Below, in pieces: positions 8,465 to 16,606 of a stretch of DNA of 36,554 nt. The notes below the pieces were generated by a model that did not search any database, had not been told where the DNA came from, and saw only the letters and a list, made by a program, of their open reading frames with translations. The stretch is from a virus: positions 11,414 to 47,967 of IMG/VR virus record IMGVR_UViG_3300029448_000070; one strand, written 5' to 3'. A program made the translations under genes and the position numbers. The stretch's first letter is position 1. Each line of letters opens with the position of its first letter.

Positions 8465-9919
8465 TTACGACGCTGTACACGTAATATCTAGAGACGTATC
8501 AAAACGTTTCAATACAATACCCGCAGTCTTCAACATGTGAACGGAAGCACCGTCAACATCAGAAGCTCTTGCAGATCCTGCATCAAATCCTCTAGGTACC
8601 ACACTACCTGCAACACACCATCTCATCATTTCACGACCTTTCTTAGAAAGCATCTGTAAATTTGCTTGACCATCATAATTTGATTGATCAACAAATACCA
8701 TACGATAAGATTCTAGTGAGAATCCAGTAGTAGGATGTTTACCACTTGCTTGAGCAACAGGACCATGATCAAATAAAGGTAGTTTAACTACATTTACTGT
8801 ATGTCCGTCAATATGCTCGTAAGAAGTAAAGTATCCTGTCATACCAAGGTTTCTACCTGAACCAGTGATGAATCTATTTTCTCCTCCAGTCTTCCAACCG
8901 TTAGAAGTAGTATTAGAGTAATGCCCTTTAAGAGCTTCATCAAATTCACGCATACCACCTGTACCTGTATAAAGCGTAACTTGTTTATTTTGAGAATCTG
9001 TCATTCCGTAGAATAAGTCCCCAATAATATTCTTAATTTTAGTCTCTGTCAAACTAGAGTAAGTATCTTTATTAACTATTTGCTCTAATAATCCAGGACC
9101 TACGATTACTGGTTGACCGTTTTCATCTTTCATGGAGGTATTACCTGCATTGTTGTATGTTTTTTGTCCGTACCAGTAGAACATCTCACACTCTTCTTTA
9201 AAGTTAAGCATGTGCTGATATTCTTCGTAATCCATCCAAAGTTTAGTAGTTTTACCACCCTTAGTAGGTAATCCAAACTCAACTACATAGTCTCGCGCGT
9301 GACCAGACATATGATATGATTTTCTTACCGTACCAATTTTGTTTCTTACCATTCCTGGAGTTTCCCAGTTTGAAGCGTTTCCTCTAGAGAAATCAACTCC
9401 TACTGGAGCATACAATTGTGCCCAAAGATCACCTACAGAATAACCACCTGTTAAAGTAGCTGAAGCTGCTGGGTTAACTAATTGTAATGTATACTTGTAA
9501 CCTTGATCAGACACTGGTGTTGGTTCCTTCATTATACGTGCTTGTTCACCTTTTGAGTTTACAAGTACGTATGGGAACACAAAATGTTTGTCTGGAAAGA
9601 TTAATTCAAATGCTGCGCCTCCAAGGCCAACATTTGTACCGCTTAAAGCAACCTGTACTGGTCGTGTTTTTCTCGTATGAGTTCTAACACGATATTCATA
9701 TTCCAATCTATCCATTGACTTAACGTTACCAACTCCCTCAGTCAAAAATGATAGTGGAAATCTTTTATCGTCTCTACCAGCCAGATGGGTAATAATCGGA
9801 GATAATTCAGTAGGCTTAGATTGCAAAGCGTTTGCCAGACTATTCATGTCTGTCATCTGAGAATCATTATAAAACGTTTTAATAACGCTAATGTTCTTAC
9901 CTTGTTGTTGTAATGCCAT
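8465..9919 (-). CDS. Major capsid protein
   Basis: The 484-aa product sits directly downstream of a scaffold-like gene in the order terminase, portal, large virion protein, scaffold, this gene, neck genes. Its length suits an HK97-fold capsid subunit. The N-terminal segment (SKPTELSPIITHLAGRDDKR) is followed by a long beta-rich body. A conserved-looking block GTVRKSYHMSGHARDYVVEF precedes MLNFKEECEMFYWYGQ, which resembles the capsid proteins of crAss-like phages as I remember them. Codon use is richer in C-ending codons than in most neighbours, as expected for the most abundant virion protein. The start follows a typical A/T-rich leader, and the 3' end carries a structured untranslated region. 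Confidence 0.85.
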   Translation of the reverse strand: MALQQQGKNISVIKTFYNDSQMTDMNSLANALQSKPTELSPIITHLAGRDDKRFPLSFLTEGVGNVKSMDRLEYEYRVRTHTRKTRPVQVALSGTNVGLGGAAFELIFPDKHFVFPYVLVNSKGEQARIMKEPTPVSDQGYKYTLQLVNPAASATLTGGYSVGDLWAQLYAPVGVDFSRGNASNWETPGMVRNKIGTVRKSYHMSGHARDYVVEFGLPTKGGKTTKLWMDYEEYQHMLNFKEECEMFYWYGQKTYNNAGNTSMKDENGQPVIVGPGLLEQIVNKDTYSSLTETKIKNIIGDLFYGMTDSQNKQVTLYTGTGGMREFDEALKGHYSNTTSNGWKTGGENRFITGSGRNLGMTGYFTSYEHIDGHTVNVVKLPLFDHGPVAQASGKHPTTGFSLESYRMVFVDQSNYDGQANLQMLSKKGREMMRWCVAGSVVPRGFDAGSARASDVDGASVHMLKTAGIVLKRFDTSLDITCTAS

Positions 9920-9947: not shown

Positions 9948-11108
9948 TTAAAAGAGACTTAAATCTAAATCTTCTATATTTACAGCTTTACTAGGTGATT
10001 TACTTGCTTTTCTTGCACTCTTTACTGTTTCCTGATGACCTTTAATTCTATCCTTAAGAGTTTGAGTACTCTTAGTTCTAGCCTTAGTATTTATCAGTTT
10101 ATCCAGATTAAATCCTTTAAACATTAAATAGTCCATTGCAAGTTTGACATCTACTGCCGCTTTATCCATATCTACATCTCTTTGTGTGTAACCTTCCTTG
10201 GTTACAGGTTTTGATATATAATCAAAAAAACCATTCTTTTCTCTTTCAGGTATTTGTATTCCCTGAAATTCTTTGGATTGACCTATAGTTTCATATATAT
10301 CATTCCAAACTTTTTGTTGCGCTTTTATTTGTTCTTGTTGGTATTCTTGCTGCTCTTTAATTACTTGTTGTTTATACTGCTTTTGCATTCCAACTAATTC
10401 TTTTTGCGCATCTTGAGCTTTAGTATATAGTTTACCACCATCTTGGTAATCATCTAATAGCCCATTTATAAATTTACTATCATGACCTTTTGATTTAAAA
10501 TACTCAGATAAAATATATTTTTGTCCCTGTGTATCTTTCTCTCCAACTTTCATTCTTGAGTAATCTGATCTTGGGTCATTAACAGCCATAAAATCTTGAC
10601 TGTTGCCACCATTCATAACATAATTTAAATGGTCTTTAACAAGTGGATAGGATTCAAATAATGAATCTAGCTGTTCTTCAGCTAATTGTGACCCAACGTC
10701 TTTTGTCATTTGTGTTAGACCATCTGCTGTATCCTCATACTTTGAGTCTTTAGTTTCATATCCTAAAGAACTTAATACTTGAGTTACTACAGAATCATCA
10801 ATTATTTCCTCTGTTTCCTCTTCTGCAACCTTTTCAGGTTTTTTAGTAAGAGAATCCGTTGAATCTTGCGGTATTTCTGTTTCCGCAAGTACCTGTTCCT
10901 GTTTCTTGTCGTCTTCCTGCTTAGCTTCAACATCATCTTCCAAAGAAGTCGTATTAGTTTGCGCTTCAGGTTCTTCATTTGTTACTGATTCTTCAGTTTT
11001 TTGAGGTTCTTCTGCTTCAATCGTTTCAACAGAATCCTCTATACCTCCATCTAACATATCGTCAAAAGAGATATCGTCTACATTTAGTTTTTTATTGTCT
11101 GTACTCAT
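9948..11108 (-). CDS. Capsid scaffold-like protein
   Basis: This 386-aa protein lies immediately upstream of the capsid gene. Its first ~130 residues are very acidic and disordered-looking (Glu/Asp/Thr rich). A helical middle follows, with a Gln/Glu/Lys-rich coiled coil (QKQYKQQVIKEQQEYQQEQI) at about residues 240-265. The basic C-terminal segment (TKSTQTLKDRIKGHQ) ends in IEDLDLSLF. Acidic N-terminus, coiled coil and basic C-terminus are the usual plan of assembly scaffolds, whose basic tail contacts the capsid protein. No protease motif is present in it. Function is inferred from composition and position. Confidence 0.65.
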   Translation of the reverse strand: MSTDNKKLNVDDISFDDMLDGGIEDSVETIEAEEPQKTEESVTNEEPEAQTNTTSLEDDVEAKQEDDKKQEQVLAETEIPQDSTDSLTKKPEKVAEEETEEIIDDSVVTQVLSSLGYETKDSKYEDTADGLTQMTKDVGSQLAEEQLDSLFESYPLVKDHLNYVMNGGNSQDFMAVNDPRSDYSRMKVGEKDTQGQKYILSEYFKSKGHDSKFINGLLDDYQDGGKLYTKAQDAQKELVGMQKQYKQQVIKEQQEYQQEQIKAQQKVWNDIYETIGQSKEFQGIQIPEREKNGFFDYISKPVTKEGYTQRDVDMDKAAVDVKLAMDYLMFKGFNLDKLINTKARTKSTQTLKDRIKGHQETVKSARKASKSPSKAVNIEDLDLSLF

Positions 11109-11186: not shown

Positions 11187-14100
11187 TTAATTTTGACTTC
11201 GTTTTAAAGCTCTATTAGTAGGAGCTCCTTTTGAACCAGGTTTTCTCATTCTTTCACCTGATCCCGAAGCTATTCTTTTTCTTTTAGCGTGAATATTAGC
11301 CCATAATCCTCCACCTTTAAATCTATAATTTAATCCTAATCTTGGGGTAACATTATGTCCAACAGATCCAGTAATATCCATTCTATTACTTATAGGTTGA
11401 TTAAATCCAGTTCCAAGTATAAAATCAGAAGGCAATTGCTCAAGCATAGGAAATAATTTTGTTTTTTTATTTTTTCTTTGTTTAGGTAATGGTATTTCTA
11501 ATACACTATCTCCTTTAAATTTATAATTTTTACCCGGTTTCATTATTTTTTGATTACCTAAATTATCTATTCCTAATAAAGGAATATTTACACCTTTCAT
11601 GGTGATATTATTACCTGGTATTATATTAAATGGTCTATTTTTATCTGGACTGTTTTTCTTATATCCTGTTTTTGAATATCCTCCCTTCTTCTTTAATTTA
11701 TATCCGCCTTTTTGAAATCCTGCCCAATTTCTAAATCTATTAATATTATTTGCTACTCTATCATAAATTGAGGTTCCTGGAACATCAGTAAGTTCACCTT
11801 TTTCTGATGATGATGGAAGAACCTTAATTGGACCTAGTGTAATTGATTTTGTACTATCTGAATGAAGCGGAGGTGCATTTATATTACTTGGTGGATTTCT
11901 TCGTTCTAACATATCTAAATAATCAGGGTCTGTAGCTAAATGCCTAGCTCCAGGAAAAGTACCTGGACGGTAAGGTCCTCTAGGTTGATCAAAAACAGGT
12001 GAACTAAAATGATTGTCATGAAAACCAAAACCTCGCTCAGCAGACTCTTCAGGAACTATTCCTAGCATTTTAGTTGTTAAATCAGGATTAACTTGCATAA
12101 CAGGACTACCTGATCCTCCAGATTTATTATATGGATCGTACATCATTTGTAGCATATCGCTTTCCCATCCTCCTAATGGTCCATACGGGCTATCTTTAAA
12201 CTGTTTAACTCCTTTATACATTTTTCTTGGACCATATATAGTTGGATTTATATTATCATTAACATCATGATATTGTATTTGATTTTGCAATGTTTCTGTA
12301 GGAGCTGGAACATATCCTGCTGCGTCTGTGTCAGAAAATGCGTCTGAACTACTTAAATTTCCTCTTGAATCACCCGCCCAACATGATCCTAAATAACAAT
12401 TTCCTTCCCATCCTGTTTCTTCATCTGTTAAAATATTTGAAATAGCTTCAGCCCATGTATCATTAACTGATCTTTGATAGTTTGGACCGTATATATTATC
12501 AAGATCTTGTTCTGTTCTAAACGGTATTGGGTCTACATCATCTCTTTCTTCTATTGCTGTTAAAGATGGTTGATAACGAGATTCTGCTCTATATCTAGAT
12601 AGTGCATCTGCATATCTTTGATCATCTGAAAGATACATACCACCAATATGTCCTTGCGCGTGTCCTAAAAGATATAAATCATCTTGTGAGCCCAATGAAT
12701 ATCCTTGAGCTTTTATCCATTGATTTATATTATCTCCTCTATCTCCTTCTATTGATGCAGGATCATTATAAGATAACTCATCATGTAGCGGTCGAGATTC
12801 TGTTTGCCGTATCATTTCATCATGATTTATCTCCATTCCCATCCTTTCTGTCCTTTCTTCCCTTTCCCGTTGAGTCATTTGAAATAGTTGATTTTTAGAA
12901 AAACCAATATCACGTGGAATTTCTACAATTTCATAATTATCTTTACCGTAATAAGCATCTAAATTAAGTCTCATTCTGTCAGCTTCCTCCTTCATATCCT
13001 TGTCACCTTCTAAATAAAAAACTAATCCTCTATTATCTTGTTGAGTTTGTGCATTATGCGGTCCTCCATGACTATATTTAAATCTAAATCCTCCTTTTTG
13101 AGCATTCATAGTTTCAACTAAGTCATTATCAGGTTCATTAGATGCAACATTATTCATCATCCACATTAAATCATTATCTGTATATTCTTTAATTAATCTT
13201 TGAAAGACTGGAGAATTTTTTAATTGTTCATATGCAATTCCTAAATCATAAGAATCAAAATTTTCTAATCCTGCATCATATATGTTTGATTGATATAATA
13301 AATATCTGAAAGCATCTAAATCTGCTTTAACTTCTAAAGTTTTAATTTTGTCATTTTGAAATCGTCCTCCATTTTGAAGAATTTTACTTCTATCTAAAAT
13401 TTCTTTTTCATCTGTTTTATTTAAAGTAGTTTTAGTAGATATATGTGATAACTCATGCGCTAATATTTCTTCTTCAGATGCATTTGGAAATCGACGCCTA
13501 TCTGTATCATAATCAGTAACTATATGATTAGATTCTGGATAAGCTCTAGATCCTACTGGAAGAAATTCAGGATTATCATAGTCTTCTCTAGGTTGAATTA
13601 CAGGACCGTGTTTAAAATTTTCATATCTATCTGCTATTTGTTCTTGAGTATATCCAGACTCTAATAAACGTTCTTTATGTTTAGGAGATTGATAATAGTA
13701 TTGTGCAAATGATAATGGATTAGAGGTATCATCAGCAGGAGGTTTCATTTGATCTGAAGTAAGTTGAGGATGTTCTCTTATTCCTCCTGTTTGCTTATTA
13801 AAATAACTATTTTTATAATTATATATATAAGATTTAGGATTTATATCCTTTAAATCTAAATCTAAATCTATCATATCTTTTATATGATATCCTCCTTTTT
13901 TATAATTAGAAGATTCTTCTAAAGTATTAGAAACATTTTCACCTCTAGGCATTTCACCTGGCTGAGAAGTTTCATAACTTCTAACTAAAGCTTGTGAATT
14001 TGGAACTTGATCAGGAGTTGTAGGCATGTGTGGAGGAGATATATTAACAGACGGCACTGTAGATTTAATATCAACTCCAGGTGCTGCACTTCCTGGATTC

Positions 14101-14231
14101 TCTGGTTCTGGTAATTTAGATTCTAATTCAGAAGGATCTTCTTGAGCCCATAGATCTGACATAAATCCAGTATAGCCTTCTCTTAAGGCTTGCTCCATTA
14201 TTTCTAATTTTCTTTGATCTGTTAATGCCAT
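11187..14231 (-). CDS. 1014-aa multidomain virion protein with metallopeptidase-like and caspase-like motifs
   Basis: The start overlaps the portal stop (TAATG), so the two are translationally coupled. The sequence shows, in order: a disordered Pro-rich N-terminus (1-110); an HExxH motif EEILAHELSH with H259, E260 and H263, followed by LEVKADLDAF (E300, D304), which could supply the third metal ligand as in gluzincins; a segment from about 400 with LYLLGHAQG (H524) and CYLGSCWAG (C617), spaced like the His and Cys of clan CD peptidases (caspase, CHAT); and a Lys-rich C-terminal part. KKGGY, QKGGF, QKGGY, KKGGY and FKGGG occur at residues 111, 378, 840, 848 and 972. The protein ends in LWANIHAKRKRIASGSGERM. 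It may be an internal ejected or cargo protein, a maturation protease, or both. The motifs are seen; catalysis is inferred. Confidence 0.65.
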   Translation of the reverse strand: MALTDQRKLEIMEQALREGYTGFMSDLWAQEDPSELESKLPEPENPGSAAPGVDIKSTVPSVNISPPHMPTTPDQVPNSQALVRSYETSQPGEMPRGENVSNTLEESSNYKKGGYHIKDMIDLDLDLKDINPKSYIYNYKNSYFNKQTGGIREHPQLTSDQMKPPADDTSNPLSFAQYYYQSPKHKERLLESGYTQEQIADRYENFKHGPVIQPREDYDNPEFLPVGSRAYPESNHIVTDYDTDRRRFPNASEEEILAHELSHISTKTTLNKTDEKEILDRSKILQNGGRFQNDKIKTLEVKADLDAFRYLLYQSNIYDAGLENFDSYDLGIAYEQLKNSPVFQRLIKEYTDNDLMWMMNNVASNEPDNDLVETMNAQKGGFRFKYSHGGPHNAQTQQDNRGLVFYLEGDKDMKEEADRMRLNLDAYYGKDNYEIVEIPRDIGFSKNQLFQMTQREREERTERMGMEINHDEMIRQTESRPLHDELSYNDPASIEGDRGDNINQWIKAQGYSLGSQDDLYLLGHAQGHIGGMYLSDDQRYADALSRYRAESRYQPSLTAIEERDDVDPIPFRTEQDLDNIYGPNYQRSVNDTWAEAISNILTDEETGWEGNCYLGSCWAGDSRGNLSSSDAFSDTDAAGYVPAPTETLQNQIQYHDVNDNINPTIYGPRKMYKGVKQFKDSPYGPLGGWESDMLQMMYDPYNKSGGSGSPVMQVNPDLTTKMLGIVPEESAERGFGFHDNHFSSPVFDQPRGPYRPGTFPGARHLATDPDYLDMLERRNPPSNINAPPLHSDSTKSITLGPIKVLPSSSEKGELTDVPGTSIYDRVANNINRFRNWAGFQKGGYKLKKKGGYSKTGYKKNSPDKNRPFNIIPGNNITMKGVNIPLLGIDNLGNQKIMKPGKNYKFKGDSVLEIPLPKQRKNKKTKLFPMLEQLPSDFILGTGFNQPISNRMDITGSVGHNVTPRLGLNYRFKGGGLWANIHAKRKRIASGSGERMRKPGSKGAPTNRALKRSQN

Positions 14232-16606
14232 TATTCAGATTTAGGTTTTTGAGCTGCTTGTTTTTTAATAACTTGATCTTCTTTTTTAATTTCTCGATCT
14301 TTTTCTTTGTCTTCTTTTGCCTGCTCTCTATCCTCATCATGTTGGATAGCAGATACACCTGCTTGTTCAGCTTTTAACCTTTGATCTTCTCTAATCAAAT
14401 CTTCTTTTGCTTGATTTGATCTAGATTTTTCCATACTATCTTCTGCTTTTAAATCTGTTTGCCTACTTTTAATTTGTGCATCTTGTTGAGATTTATCTGC
14501 ATTAAATTGATTATCTCTTAACTTAGCTTCAGCAGCTATTAAAGCAATACGTATTTTTGTTTCTCTATCTTTTTCATTTTGCTCATTTTCATTCTCCATT
14601 GTATCTCTAGTCAATTCTCTTTGAGCTTCAGCCTGTTCTGCTTCAGCTTGTTGCTGTGCTTCTGCTAATTGTTGTTGAGCAGATTCGGCAGATTTAATTT
14701 TTTCTTTAATTTCACTAAAATTATCTGCATCTACCATTTCAGCAATAGTAGAAGCTGGTACTCCATTTTGTACCATAGATTGTGCAAGTTGTTTTAATAT
14801 TTCTAACTTGTCTTGATCTTGACCTGAGTCTGAAACAAATATTCCATATTCGGATTCCATATGTTTTAAACTATCTAAATCAAATAACTCTTTTGTACCA
14901 TCTGACATGATGTACATTCCTTTTTTACCTGTTAACCAAGCTTCTTTTGAATAATCTAATAATGCTTGCAAATCTCTTTGTTCTAATCTAGAAAATTTTC
15001 TAAATATATCTTCTGTAATATGAGATGATTGTACAATAGCTTGTTGAGATGTAGCTTTACCTTCATAATTACCAACTTGTCCTTGTCTTTGTCTATTTAC
15101 TCCAGAAACTTTTTCCCACTCTATCATTATAGAATCTAATAAAGCAATATATTGTTCAATTGTTTTAATAGATAAATCTAATACTCCTTGATGTTGCGGA
15201 GATAATTGTATACCTTCTTTATTATAATCTACCCACGCGATACCTGTACCTTCTACATAGTACATAAATTTATCCATATCCCATTTCTTTGGGATCATAT
15301 TAATATCAAATTGCGCAATTATATCTTTACTTTTAGCTATAGCTAACTCTAATCTATATTTATAAATGTTATAATTTAATTGGTAAGGTATTCCTAAAGA
15401 TACTAAAGATATATTTTTTGTATTTAAGTCAGAATATTTTCTACCATTAATTGGAAGTTTACATTTAGACGGGTTGTCCATAGATGCTCTTTGATTTGTA
15501 CATGGTTCTATTTTAACATATAAATTACCATCTATTCTTGTACCTTCCCAAACTTCATTAATCCATTGCCAATCTACTGTAGCTCCCATTTGTTTTAATT
15601 GAGCAGGCATTCTAAACTTTTCATCTACTATTCTTTCTTCCCAAGATCCTGTTTGAGGATCTAGATAATTTAAAAATCCAACTTTTTTTCTACTCTTCCA
15701 ATATACAGTAACTACTTCTATAAGTCTTTCTCTATACATTTCTCTATCATCTGCTCTACTAGAAACTGTTAAATACGAATCCATGCTAGCATTTTCGGGT
15801 TCTTCTAATCTTAAAATTTGAGAATCATCTAAAAAGTCTCTGTAATGATCTATAATAGTAGATGCATGTACATATTTTCTAATTAAAGCCCAATCTCCAT
15901 CTTCAACAAATTCTACATCAGGATCTTTATCATAGTCAATATCTAAAGGATTTAAAATTTCATAAAAAGGCTCTGAGCTACGAACTCCTCTCCAAGTGTA
16001 TACTTCCCCAGATACTAGAAAGTGAAACCATGCTTTTTGTAATTTATCATAAATTTCTTGATGTTGCATGATAAAGCTCATAGCTTGCTGACCTTTTATT
16101 GCTCTGATGTCGGTGTAATTATTTTCAAACATTTGGGATATATGTTGAGGCATTTCAACTTCTTGGCTTGGCACTCCTGTTTGTTGGCCAGCTTCATTCA
16201 TTTTATTTATAAACTGCTGTTCTAAATTTTTATAGAGCAGTTCTTTTTTAGCCTCTTCTTTAATTGTAATTGCATCAGAATTTTGTACGGTAACGGTGTA
16301 ATTGAGAGGTCGTTTAGATTTCTCTCCCAGTAGTAGATCTATAATAGGTTTAATAATAGGATAGTTACGCATTTTAGAGGGGAAGTTTTGCCTTGTTTTA
16401 CCGTAAGGCTTAAGTACGTATCTATAATCTACTTCATCTATTACACCGTTATAATAATCATATAGAGTTTTTAACCAGTCACGTCTTTCACTGTAACCGG
16501 CTGTTGAGAGATCTATGTATGCTTCTACACATGCTTCTCTCCATTTCTTAGTTTTTTTACTAAGATTTAATTTTTGTTGAGGAATTTTATTTGAACCTAA
16601 ATACAT
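14231..16606 (-). CDS. Portal protein
   Basis: This 791-aa protein lies between the terminase and the capsid genes. The N-terminal half is mixed alpha/beta (DWLKTLYDYYNGVIDEVDYR, then PIIKPIIDLLLGEKSKRP, the typical portal clip/wing lead-in). The stretch EKVSGVNRQRQGQVGNYEGK followed by SQQAIVQSS matches the crown/stem-proximal region of many portals. From about residue 640 to the end it is an extended Gln/Glu/Lys-rich coiled coil (QQQLAEAQQQAEAEQAEAQ) and then a charged tail. It forms the dodecameric DNA channel that docks the terminase. Its stop overlaps the start of the 1014-aa gene. A possible weak promoter lies in the 96-bp leader. Length and gene order fit crAss-like portals. Confidence 0.88.
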   Translation of the reverse strand: MYLGSNKIPQQKLNLSKKTKKWREACVEAYIDLSTAGYSERRDWLKTLYDYYNGVIDEVDYRYVLKPYGKTRQNFPSKMRNYPIIKPIIDLLLGEKSKRPLNYTVTVQNSDAITIKEEAKKELLYKNLEQQFINKMNEAGQQTGVPSQEVEMPQHISQMFENNYTDIRAIKGQQAMSFIMQHQEIYDKLQKAWFHFLVSGEVYTWRGVRSSEPFYEILNPLDIDYDKDPDVEFVEDGDWALIRKYVHASTIIDHYRDFLDDSQILRLEEPENASMDSYLTVSSRADDREMYRERLIEVVTVYWKSRKKVGFLNYLDPQTGSWEERIVDEKFRMPAQLKQMGATVDWQWINEVWEGTRIDGNLYVKIEPCTNQRASMDNPSKCKLPINGRKYSDLNTKNISLVSLGIPYQLNYNIYKYRLELAIAKSKDIIAQFDINMIPKKWDMDKFMYYVEGTGIAWVDYNKEGIQLSPQHQGVLDLSIKTIEQYIALLDSIMIEWEKVSGVNRQRQGQVGNYEGKATSQQAIVQSSHITEDIFRKFSRLEQRDLQALLDYSKEAWLTGKKGMYIMSDGTKELFDLDSLKHMESEYGIFVSDSGQDQDKLEILKQLAQSMVQNGVPASTIAEMVDADNFSEIKEKIKSAESAQQQLAEAQQQAEAEQAEAQRELTRDTMENENEQNEKDRETKIRIALIAAEAKLRDNQFNADKSQQDAQIKSRQTDLKAEDSMEKSRSNQAKEDLIREDQRLKAEQAGVSAIQHDEDREQAKEDKEKDREIKKEDQVIKKQAAQKPKSE

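What the first reader, a model, noticed from the sequence alone, without database searches (positions are those of the whole stretch)
11187..14231. One virion-module protein carries both a metallopeptidase-like and a caspase/CHAT-like active-site pattern
Seen: HELSH at residues 259-263 with LEVKADLDAF downstream (E300/D304), and LYLLGHAQG (H524) with CYLGSCWAG (C617). Known: HExxH plus a downstream acidic ligand marks gluzincin peptidases, and a hydrophobic strand-H-x-x-G followed by a strand ending in S-C marks clan CD peptidases such as caspases and CHAT. Inference: a protein next to the portal with two peptidase modules could process the prohead, or be ejected into the host and cut host or defence proteins. 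I know of no described phage protein with both.
Basis: partly seen in the sequence, partly recalled or inferred. Interest (0 to 1): 0.8.

Follow-up and report, generated by a model that had tools for sequence, protein, structure and literature searches.

The report
Swappable phage cargo protein, two peptidase-like domains
A marine phage related to crAssphage carries, between two of its head-building genes, a gene slot whose content changes from phage to phage, and here it holds a probable injected protein with a convincing zinc-protease domain and a second domain that conserves a caspase-like His/Cys pair but whose fold could not be confirmed.

Summary
The motifs are real and at the stated residues. 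The HExxH domain (about 165-385) belongs to a phage family of 15-16 members in which H259, E260, H263, E300 and D304 are invariant. Its model is good (pLDDT 85), and the best-ranked solved structures are mostly zinc peptidases (Zmp1/neprilysin/PepO, lethal factor, PPEP, thermolysin). Its relatives in Cellulophaga phages phi4:1 and phi14:2 are annotated as virion proteins from MS/MS. The second domain (386-711) has four known members. H524 is their only invariant His and C617 their only invariant Cys, each ending a hydrophobic stretch as in caspases/CHAT, but the model failed (pLDDT 34) and no family profile matches: clan CD is plausible, not shown. The larger result is the context. In 46 crAss-like relatives the gene between portal and scaffold is a hypervariable slot: a shared N-terminal leader followed by interchangeable payloads (many HExxH domains, lytic transglycosylase, lysozyme, ADP-ribosyltransferase). 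That argues against an essential prohead protease and for an ejected, 'polyvalent'-type cargo protein. The 2017 survey of polyvalent proteins names no clan CD peptidase.

The parts
11187..14231 (-). Slot protein, 1014 aa, the finding
   Evidence: Intact ORF between portal and scaffold; same slot in sister phages
13782..14231 (-). N-terminal leader (residues 1-150) shared by slot proteins of the clade
   Evidence: HMM from 57 other leaders finds it at E 9e-13; dN/dS 0.13 between L078 and L079
13077..13739 (-). Gluzincin-like HExxH domain (residues 165-385)
   Evidence: phrog_24249 E 2e-18; AF2 pLDDT 85; zincin fold matches
13443..13457 (-). HELSH, residues 259-263
   Evidence: H259, E260, H263 invariant in 15-16 homologues
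13320..13334 (-). E300-D304, presumed third zinc ligand and gluzincin ExxxD motif
   Evidence: Both invariant
12099..13076 (-). Second domain (residues 386-711), clan CD-like His/Cys pattern, fold unconfirmed
   Evidence: Four members; model pLDDT 34
12651..12677 (-). LYLLGHAQG, residues 519-527, with H524
   Evidence: H524 the only invariant His of the domain
12372..12398 (-). CYLGSCWAG, residues 612-620, with C617
   Evidence: C617 the only invariant Cys of the domain
11394..11675 (-). Mobile module (residues 853-946), also a stand-alone ORF of about 80 aa and part of many large mosaic phage proteins
   Evidence: 74 viral loci; phrog_36695 virion structural protein E 5e-9
11196..11309 (-). 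C-terminal GLWANIHAKRKRI tag (residues 975-1012)
   Evidence: phrog_16028 E 3e-18; stand-alone ORF of about 50 aa in many marine phages
14231..16606 (-). Portal gene (context)
   Evidence: phrog_6547 E 4e-125
9948..11108 (-). Presumed scaffold gene (context)
   Evidence: Position between slot and MCP; no family match
8465..9919 (-). Major capsid protein gene (context)
   Evidence: phrog_11589 E 8e-86

Best explanation
A virion cargo protein of a marine crAss-like phage, encoded in a hypervariable slot between portal and scaffold. The conserved leader (perhaps with the C-terminal modules) loads it into the head; the payload domains are exchanged between phages. It is ejected with or ahead of the DNA. 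The gluzincin domain acts as a zinc protease that either releases the modules from the polypeptide or cuts host proteins, and the second domain acts as a clan CD-like cysteine protease effector. Shown: conserved active-site residues, predicted zincin fold, the slot and its payload swapping, and (from public annotation) virion presence of homologues of the HExxH domain. Inferred: loading, ejection, proteolysis, targets. Least certain: the clan CD fold, about even odds.
For: Invariant HExxH...ExxxD in 15-16 homologues, confident model, zincin fold matches. Homologues phi4:1 gp41 and phi14:2 g070 annotated from virion MS/MS. Slot statistics: portal pair coverage 0.98, slot 0.11, leader shared and the rest not; leader HMM. 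Payloads SLT, lysozyme, ART-PolyVal, many HExxH. crAss001 stores ejected cargo proteins in head and tail (PMC10172136). Conserved H524/C617 pair.
Against: No virion or ejection data for this phage or its close relatives. The second domain has no confirmed fold, only four members and a relatively high dN/dS of 0.56. The cargo proteins shown in crAss001 (gp45, gp46) are encoded elsewhere, not next to the portal.
Confidence: 0.6

Rival explanations
1. It is the prohead (maturation) protease: it cleaves scaffold or capsid protein during assembly.
For: Encoded between portal and scaffold; zincin-like active site; cr109_1 has a gene annotated as putative zincin protease near its portal.
Against: Relatives with the same head genes have unrelated slot proteins, one of 149 aa without HExxH. 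An essential assembly enzyme would not be exchanged like this.
Confidence: 0.12
2. It is an ejected structural protein that helps DNA cross the envelope (like T7 internal proteins); the enzymatic domains open the cell wall or a channel rather than attack host proteins.
For: Some slots carry lytic transglycosylase or phage lysozyme; phi4:1 gp41 is an MS/MS-detected virion tail protein; gp45 and gp46 of crAss001 are proposed channel formers.
Against: Payloads differ completely between close relatives, and one is an ADP-ribosyltransferase of the polyvalent type, of no obvious use in channel formation.
Confidence: 0.2
3. The second domain is not a protease but another enzyme, for example a degenerate alpha/beta hydrolase (GHAQG resembles the GHSxG nucleophile elbow), or a structural domain.
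For: No clan CD profile or fold match; the residue after the His varies (A, T, N).
Against: The hydrolase nucleophile position is not conserved, while one His and one Cys are the only invariant residues of their kind.
Confidence: 0.4

Closest known systems
Polyvalent proteins of phages and conjugative elements (Iyer et al. 2017, PMC5512222)
   Same: Large multi-domain protein of a portal-terminase phage with a zincin-like domain; a sister slot protein carries ART-PolyVal
   Different: Sits in a hypervariable portal-adjacent slot behind a shared leader; second domain has a clan CD-like pattern, a peptidase class not among the four named there
Cellulophaga phage phi4:1 gp41 and phi14:2 g070 virion proteins
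   Same: Homologous HExxH domain
   Different: Different other domains, other genome position, no second domain of this type
crAss001 cargo proteins gp45 and gp46 (PMC10172136)
   Same: Proposed role: packaged and ejected protein of a crAss-like phage
   Different: No sequence relation tested or found; encoded elsewhere
Gluzincin peptidases M13, M34, M4
   Same: Predicted fold and active-site pattern
   Different: About 10-14% identity; no family profile match
Clan CD peptidases (C14 caspases, CHAT, C25)
   Same: Hydrophobic stretch-His, then hydrophobic stretch-[ST]C, conserved in four copies
   Different: No profile or fold match; His not followed by Gly

Membership tests
Gluzincin metallopeptidases | HExxH motif, conserved | tested here: met
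   Invariant in 15-16 homologues
Gluzincin metallopeptidases | Downstream Glu ligand in a C-terminal helix | tested here: met
   E300 and D304 invariant, in a predicted helix
Gluzincin metallopeptidases | Zincin fold | tested here: met
   Predicted model only; Z 7.9 to 5.0, mostly zincins; Foldseek alone not significant in PDB
Gluzincin metallopeptidases | Zinc binding and proteolysis | not testable with these tools
   Needs biochemistry
Clan CD peptidases (caspase/CHAT-like) | His and Cys dyad after hydrophobic strands, conserved | tested here: met
   H524 and C617 invariant, 4 of 4
Clan CD peptidases (caspase/CHAT-like) | Gly after the catalytic His | tested here: not met
   A, T, T, N in the four copies; a CHAT copy fetched here also has H-A
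Clan CD peptidases (caspase/CHAT-like) | Caspase-like alpha/beta fold | tested here: inconclusive
   Model pLDDT 34
Clan CD peptidases (caspase/CHAT-like) | Match to a family profile (CHAT, C14) | tested here: not met
   No match at E 10
Polyvalent proteins | Several disparate domains in one phage protein of a portal-terminase phage | tested here: met
Polyvalent proteins | Domains shared with known polyvalent proteins | tested here: inconclusive
   ART-PolyVal in a sister slot protein, not in this one
Polyvalent proteins | Packaged and injected | not testable with these tools
   Only homologues of one domain annotated from virion MS/MS
Prohead maturation protease | Conserved with the head genes it serves | tested here: not met
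   Slot protein replaced by unrelated ones in relatives with conserved portal, scaffold and MCP
Crassvirales | Related portal, same gene order TerL-portal-X-MCP | tested here: met
   Portal 26-34% identical to crassvirus portals; gene order. Formal placement not tested with a tree

The most novel reading that the evidence does not exclude
A dedicated, fast-swapping cargo slot next to the portal delivers polymorphic effectors of crAss-like phages, and this copy delivers the first phage-injected protein that joins a gluzincin and a clan CD (caspase/CHAT-like) protease, for example to cut host defence proteins at the start of infection.
Probability: 0.3. Interest if true: 0.85.

Novelty: new variant of a known kind. 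Interest (0 to 1): 0.62.

Why it matters
crAss-like phages are among the most abundant phages, and what their ejected proteins do is mostly unknown. A single slot that is refilled with different enzymes, behind a shared leader and between nearly unchanged head genes, gives a direct way to find phage effectors: read the slot in each genome and test the payload. If the second domain is a caspase-like protease, phages would be using the protease class that bacteria use in several defence systems.

Tried and rejected
AF2 on the second domain with its four known sequences: pLDDT 34, so no fold search was made. Searches for more members of that domain: viral contigs gave only L078, L079 and L095; genome contigs none; phage and plasmid records none worth keeping. 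PDB and Pfam sequence searches: none. Profile-profile comparison with C14, CHAT and C25 sets taken from bacterial genomes: no signal, but C14 against CHAT also gave only 1.4% probability, so the test lacks power. GG motifs as cleavage sites: GG is only slightly above expectation in slot proteins (354 against 292), so no claim is made. NCBIfam: no match. eCIS_core (PF13699) is a sub-threshold match to the HExxH region (E 0.035 at best), not used. Literature searches for crAss-like phages with DUF192, zincin or polyvalent proteins found no description of this slot; the library lacks most subscription journals.

Full report
What was checked. The ORF at 11187-14231 (-) is intact, 1014 aa, and starts on the last base of the portal gene.

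The phage. The window lies in an IMG/VR virus record of 47,967 bases. TerL, portal and MCP match PHROG packaging families, and the nearest named portals are those of crassviruses, at 26-34% identity in the rows shown. The order TerL-portal-X-MCP resembles cr109_1, cr125_1 and Cellulophaga phi14:2.

The HExxH domain. Residues 170-366 match phrog_24249 (E 2e-18). Homologues came from other phages, among them Cellulophaga phi17:2 and phi4:1. In alignments of 15-16 sequences, down to 22% identity, H259, E260, H263, E300, D304, R309 and R345 are invariant. The AF2 model has pLDDT 85 and pTM 0.83. In the VIA comparison the rows are mostly zincin peptidases: Zmp1 Z 7.9, ECE-1 and neprilysin 7.3, PepO 7.2, lethal factor 6.5, PPEP 5.4, thermolysin 5.3; these Z values are middling on their own, and the agreement of the list with the invariant ligands carries the argument. 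Foldseek alone was not significant in PDB. Among predicted viral structures it found phi4:1 (E 6e-12) and the phi14:2 structural protein (E 2e-8); both are annotated from virion MS/MS. The phi14:2 g070 sequence carries HEFTH and HEFIH and scores with the HExxH profile. The gluzincin reading is well supported; catalysis is not tested.

The second domain. Its only relatives found are in L078, L079 and L095, all in the same slot of sister phages. The four copies are 27-32% identical to the window's and keep exactly one His (H524) and one Cys (C617). Both follow hydrophobic stretches: DLYLLGH, DIILWGH, DIILWGH, DLILMGH, and CYLGSC, MYFGTC, MYFGTC, CYMGTC. This is the clan CD arrangement by established knowledge of caspases and CHAT, and C14 and CHAT sequences fetched here show it. 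Against it: no family or PDB match, a failed model, and no Gly after the His. The domain evolves faster than the HExxH domain (dN/dS 0.56 against 0.22 between L078 and L079). I put clan CD at about even odds.

The slot. Eighty loci with a related portal were fetched. In 46 phages with portal, slot and scaffold, portal pairs align over 98% at 67% identity and scaffold pairs over 99% at 53%. Slot proteins align over 11% at the median and only 4% of pairs reach 70% coverage. The first 120 residues are shared (median coverage 0.68), the rest is not (0.00). Lengths run from 149 to 1553 aa. An HMM from 57 other leaders finds this protein at E 9e-13. Payloads recognised by Pfam are SLT, Phage_lysozyme2 and ART-PolyVal; a DUF192-like stretch lies in 24 of 43 slot proteins, in the examples shown within the leader and below Pfam's cut-off. 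HExxH occurs 17 times in 65 slot proteins against 0.74 expected, in several contexts unlike this one, and never in portal, scaffold or MCP. L078 and L079 carry a second HExxH (HEWFH) where the window has its C-terminal modules.

Mechanism. An essential assembly protease would hardly be exchanged for unrelated proteins, so prohead processing is unlikely. A protein encoded next to the portal, with exchangeable enzymatic payloads and a constant leader, fits cargo that is packaged and ejected. crAss001 stores such cargo in head and tail, one part bound to the portal (PMC10172136). The payload types fit the polyvalent proteins of Iyer et al. (PMC5512222), whose zincin domains are proposed either to process the polyprotein or to act on host proteins. 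Packaging, ejection and targets are inference.

Novelty. The class (injected multi-domain phage protein with a zincin) is known. New here, as far as the library shows, are the hypervariable portal-adjacent slot with a shared leader and, if the fold holds, a clan CD peptidase as payload; the 2017 survey names four peptidase superfamilies, none of clan CD.

Limits. Only four sequences for the second domain and no structure of it; no virion data for this phage; relatives in the slot statistics are not independent; subscription literature not searched.

Noticed in passing
11196-11309 (residues 975-1012): A peptide GLWANIHAKRKRI...MRKPGSKGAPT, up to 87-97% identical, is a stand-alone ORF of about 50 aa in cyanophages, pelagiphages, roseophages and many other marine viral contigs, in HTVC168P between scaffold and capsid genes; here it is fused to the C-terminus. 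Function unknown; a virion or packaging tag is one guess.
   Followed up: partly
11394-11675 (residues 853-946): A mobile module (ITMKGVxxPLLGIDxxG...MKPGKNYKFKG) recurs in dozens of large mosaic phage proteins and as stand-alone ORFs of about 80 aa in L001-L013.
   Followed up: partly
L217:2489-2647 (Roseobacter phage CRP-810): The small tag ORF is annotated as ribonucleotide reductase A subunit, evidently a wrong name copied between records.
   Followed up: no
L078:7470-11150 and L079:2869-6435: Sister slot proteins carry a second, unrelated-looking HExxH (YDTAGHEWFHHLQ) in their C-terminal half.
   Followed up: no
L163:10294-14955: Slot protein of 1553 aa with an ART-PolyVal domain at residues 607-772.
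   Followed up: no
L178:8058-9329 (crAssphage cr109_1): A gene near the portal of this gut crassvirus, annotated hypothetical, carries HEMTH, contains in-frame TAG/TAA/TGA-type stops under table 11 (stop recoding likely), and a 423-aa protein of this phage matches the HExxH model weakly (E 0.02).
   Followed up: partly
L160:4481-8871 and L162: Two adjacent ORFs fill the slot instead of one; the second (533 aa) carries the same HExxH family.
   Followed up: no
L016 and L030, L049, L070 large mosaic ORFs: The HExxH domain also sits in very large mosaic phage proteins next to other modules, including a lytic-transglycosylase-like stretch in L049.
   Followed up: no
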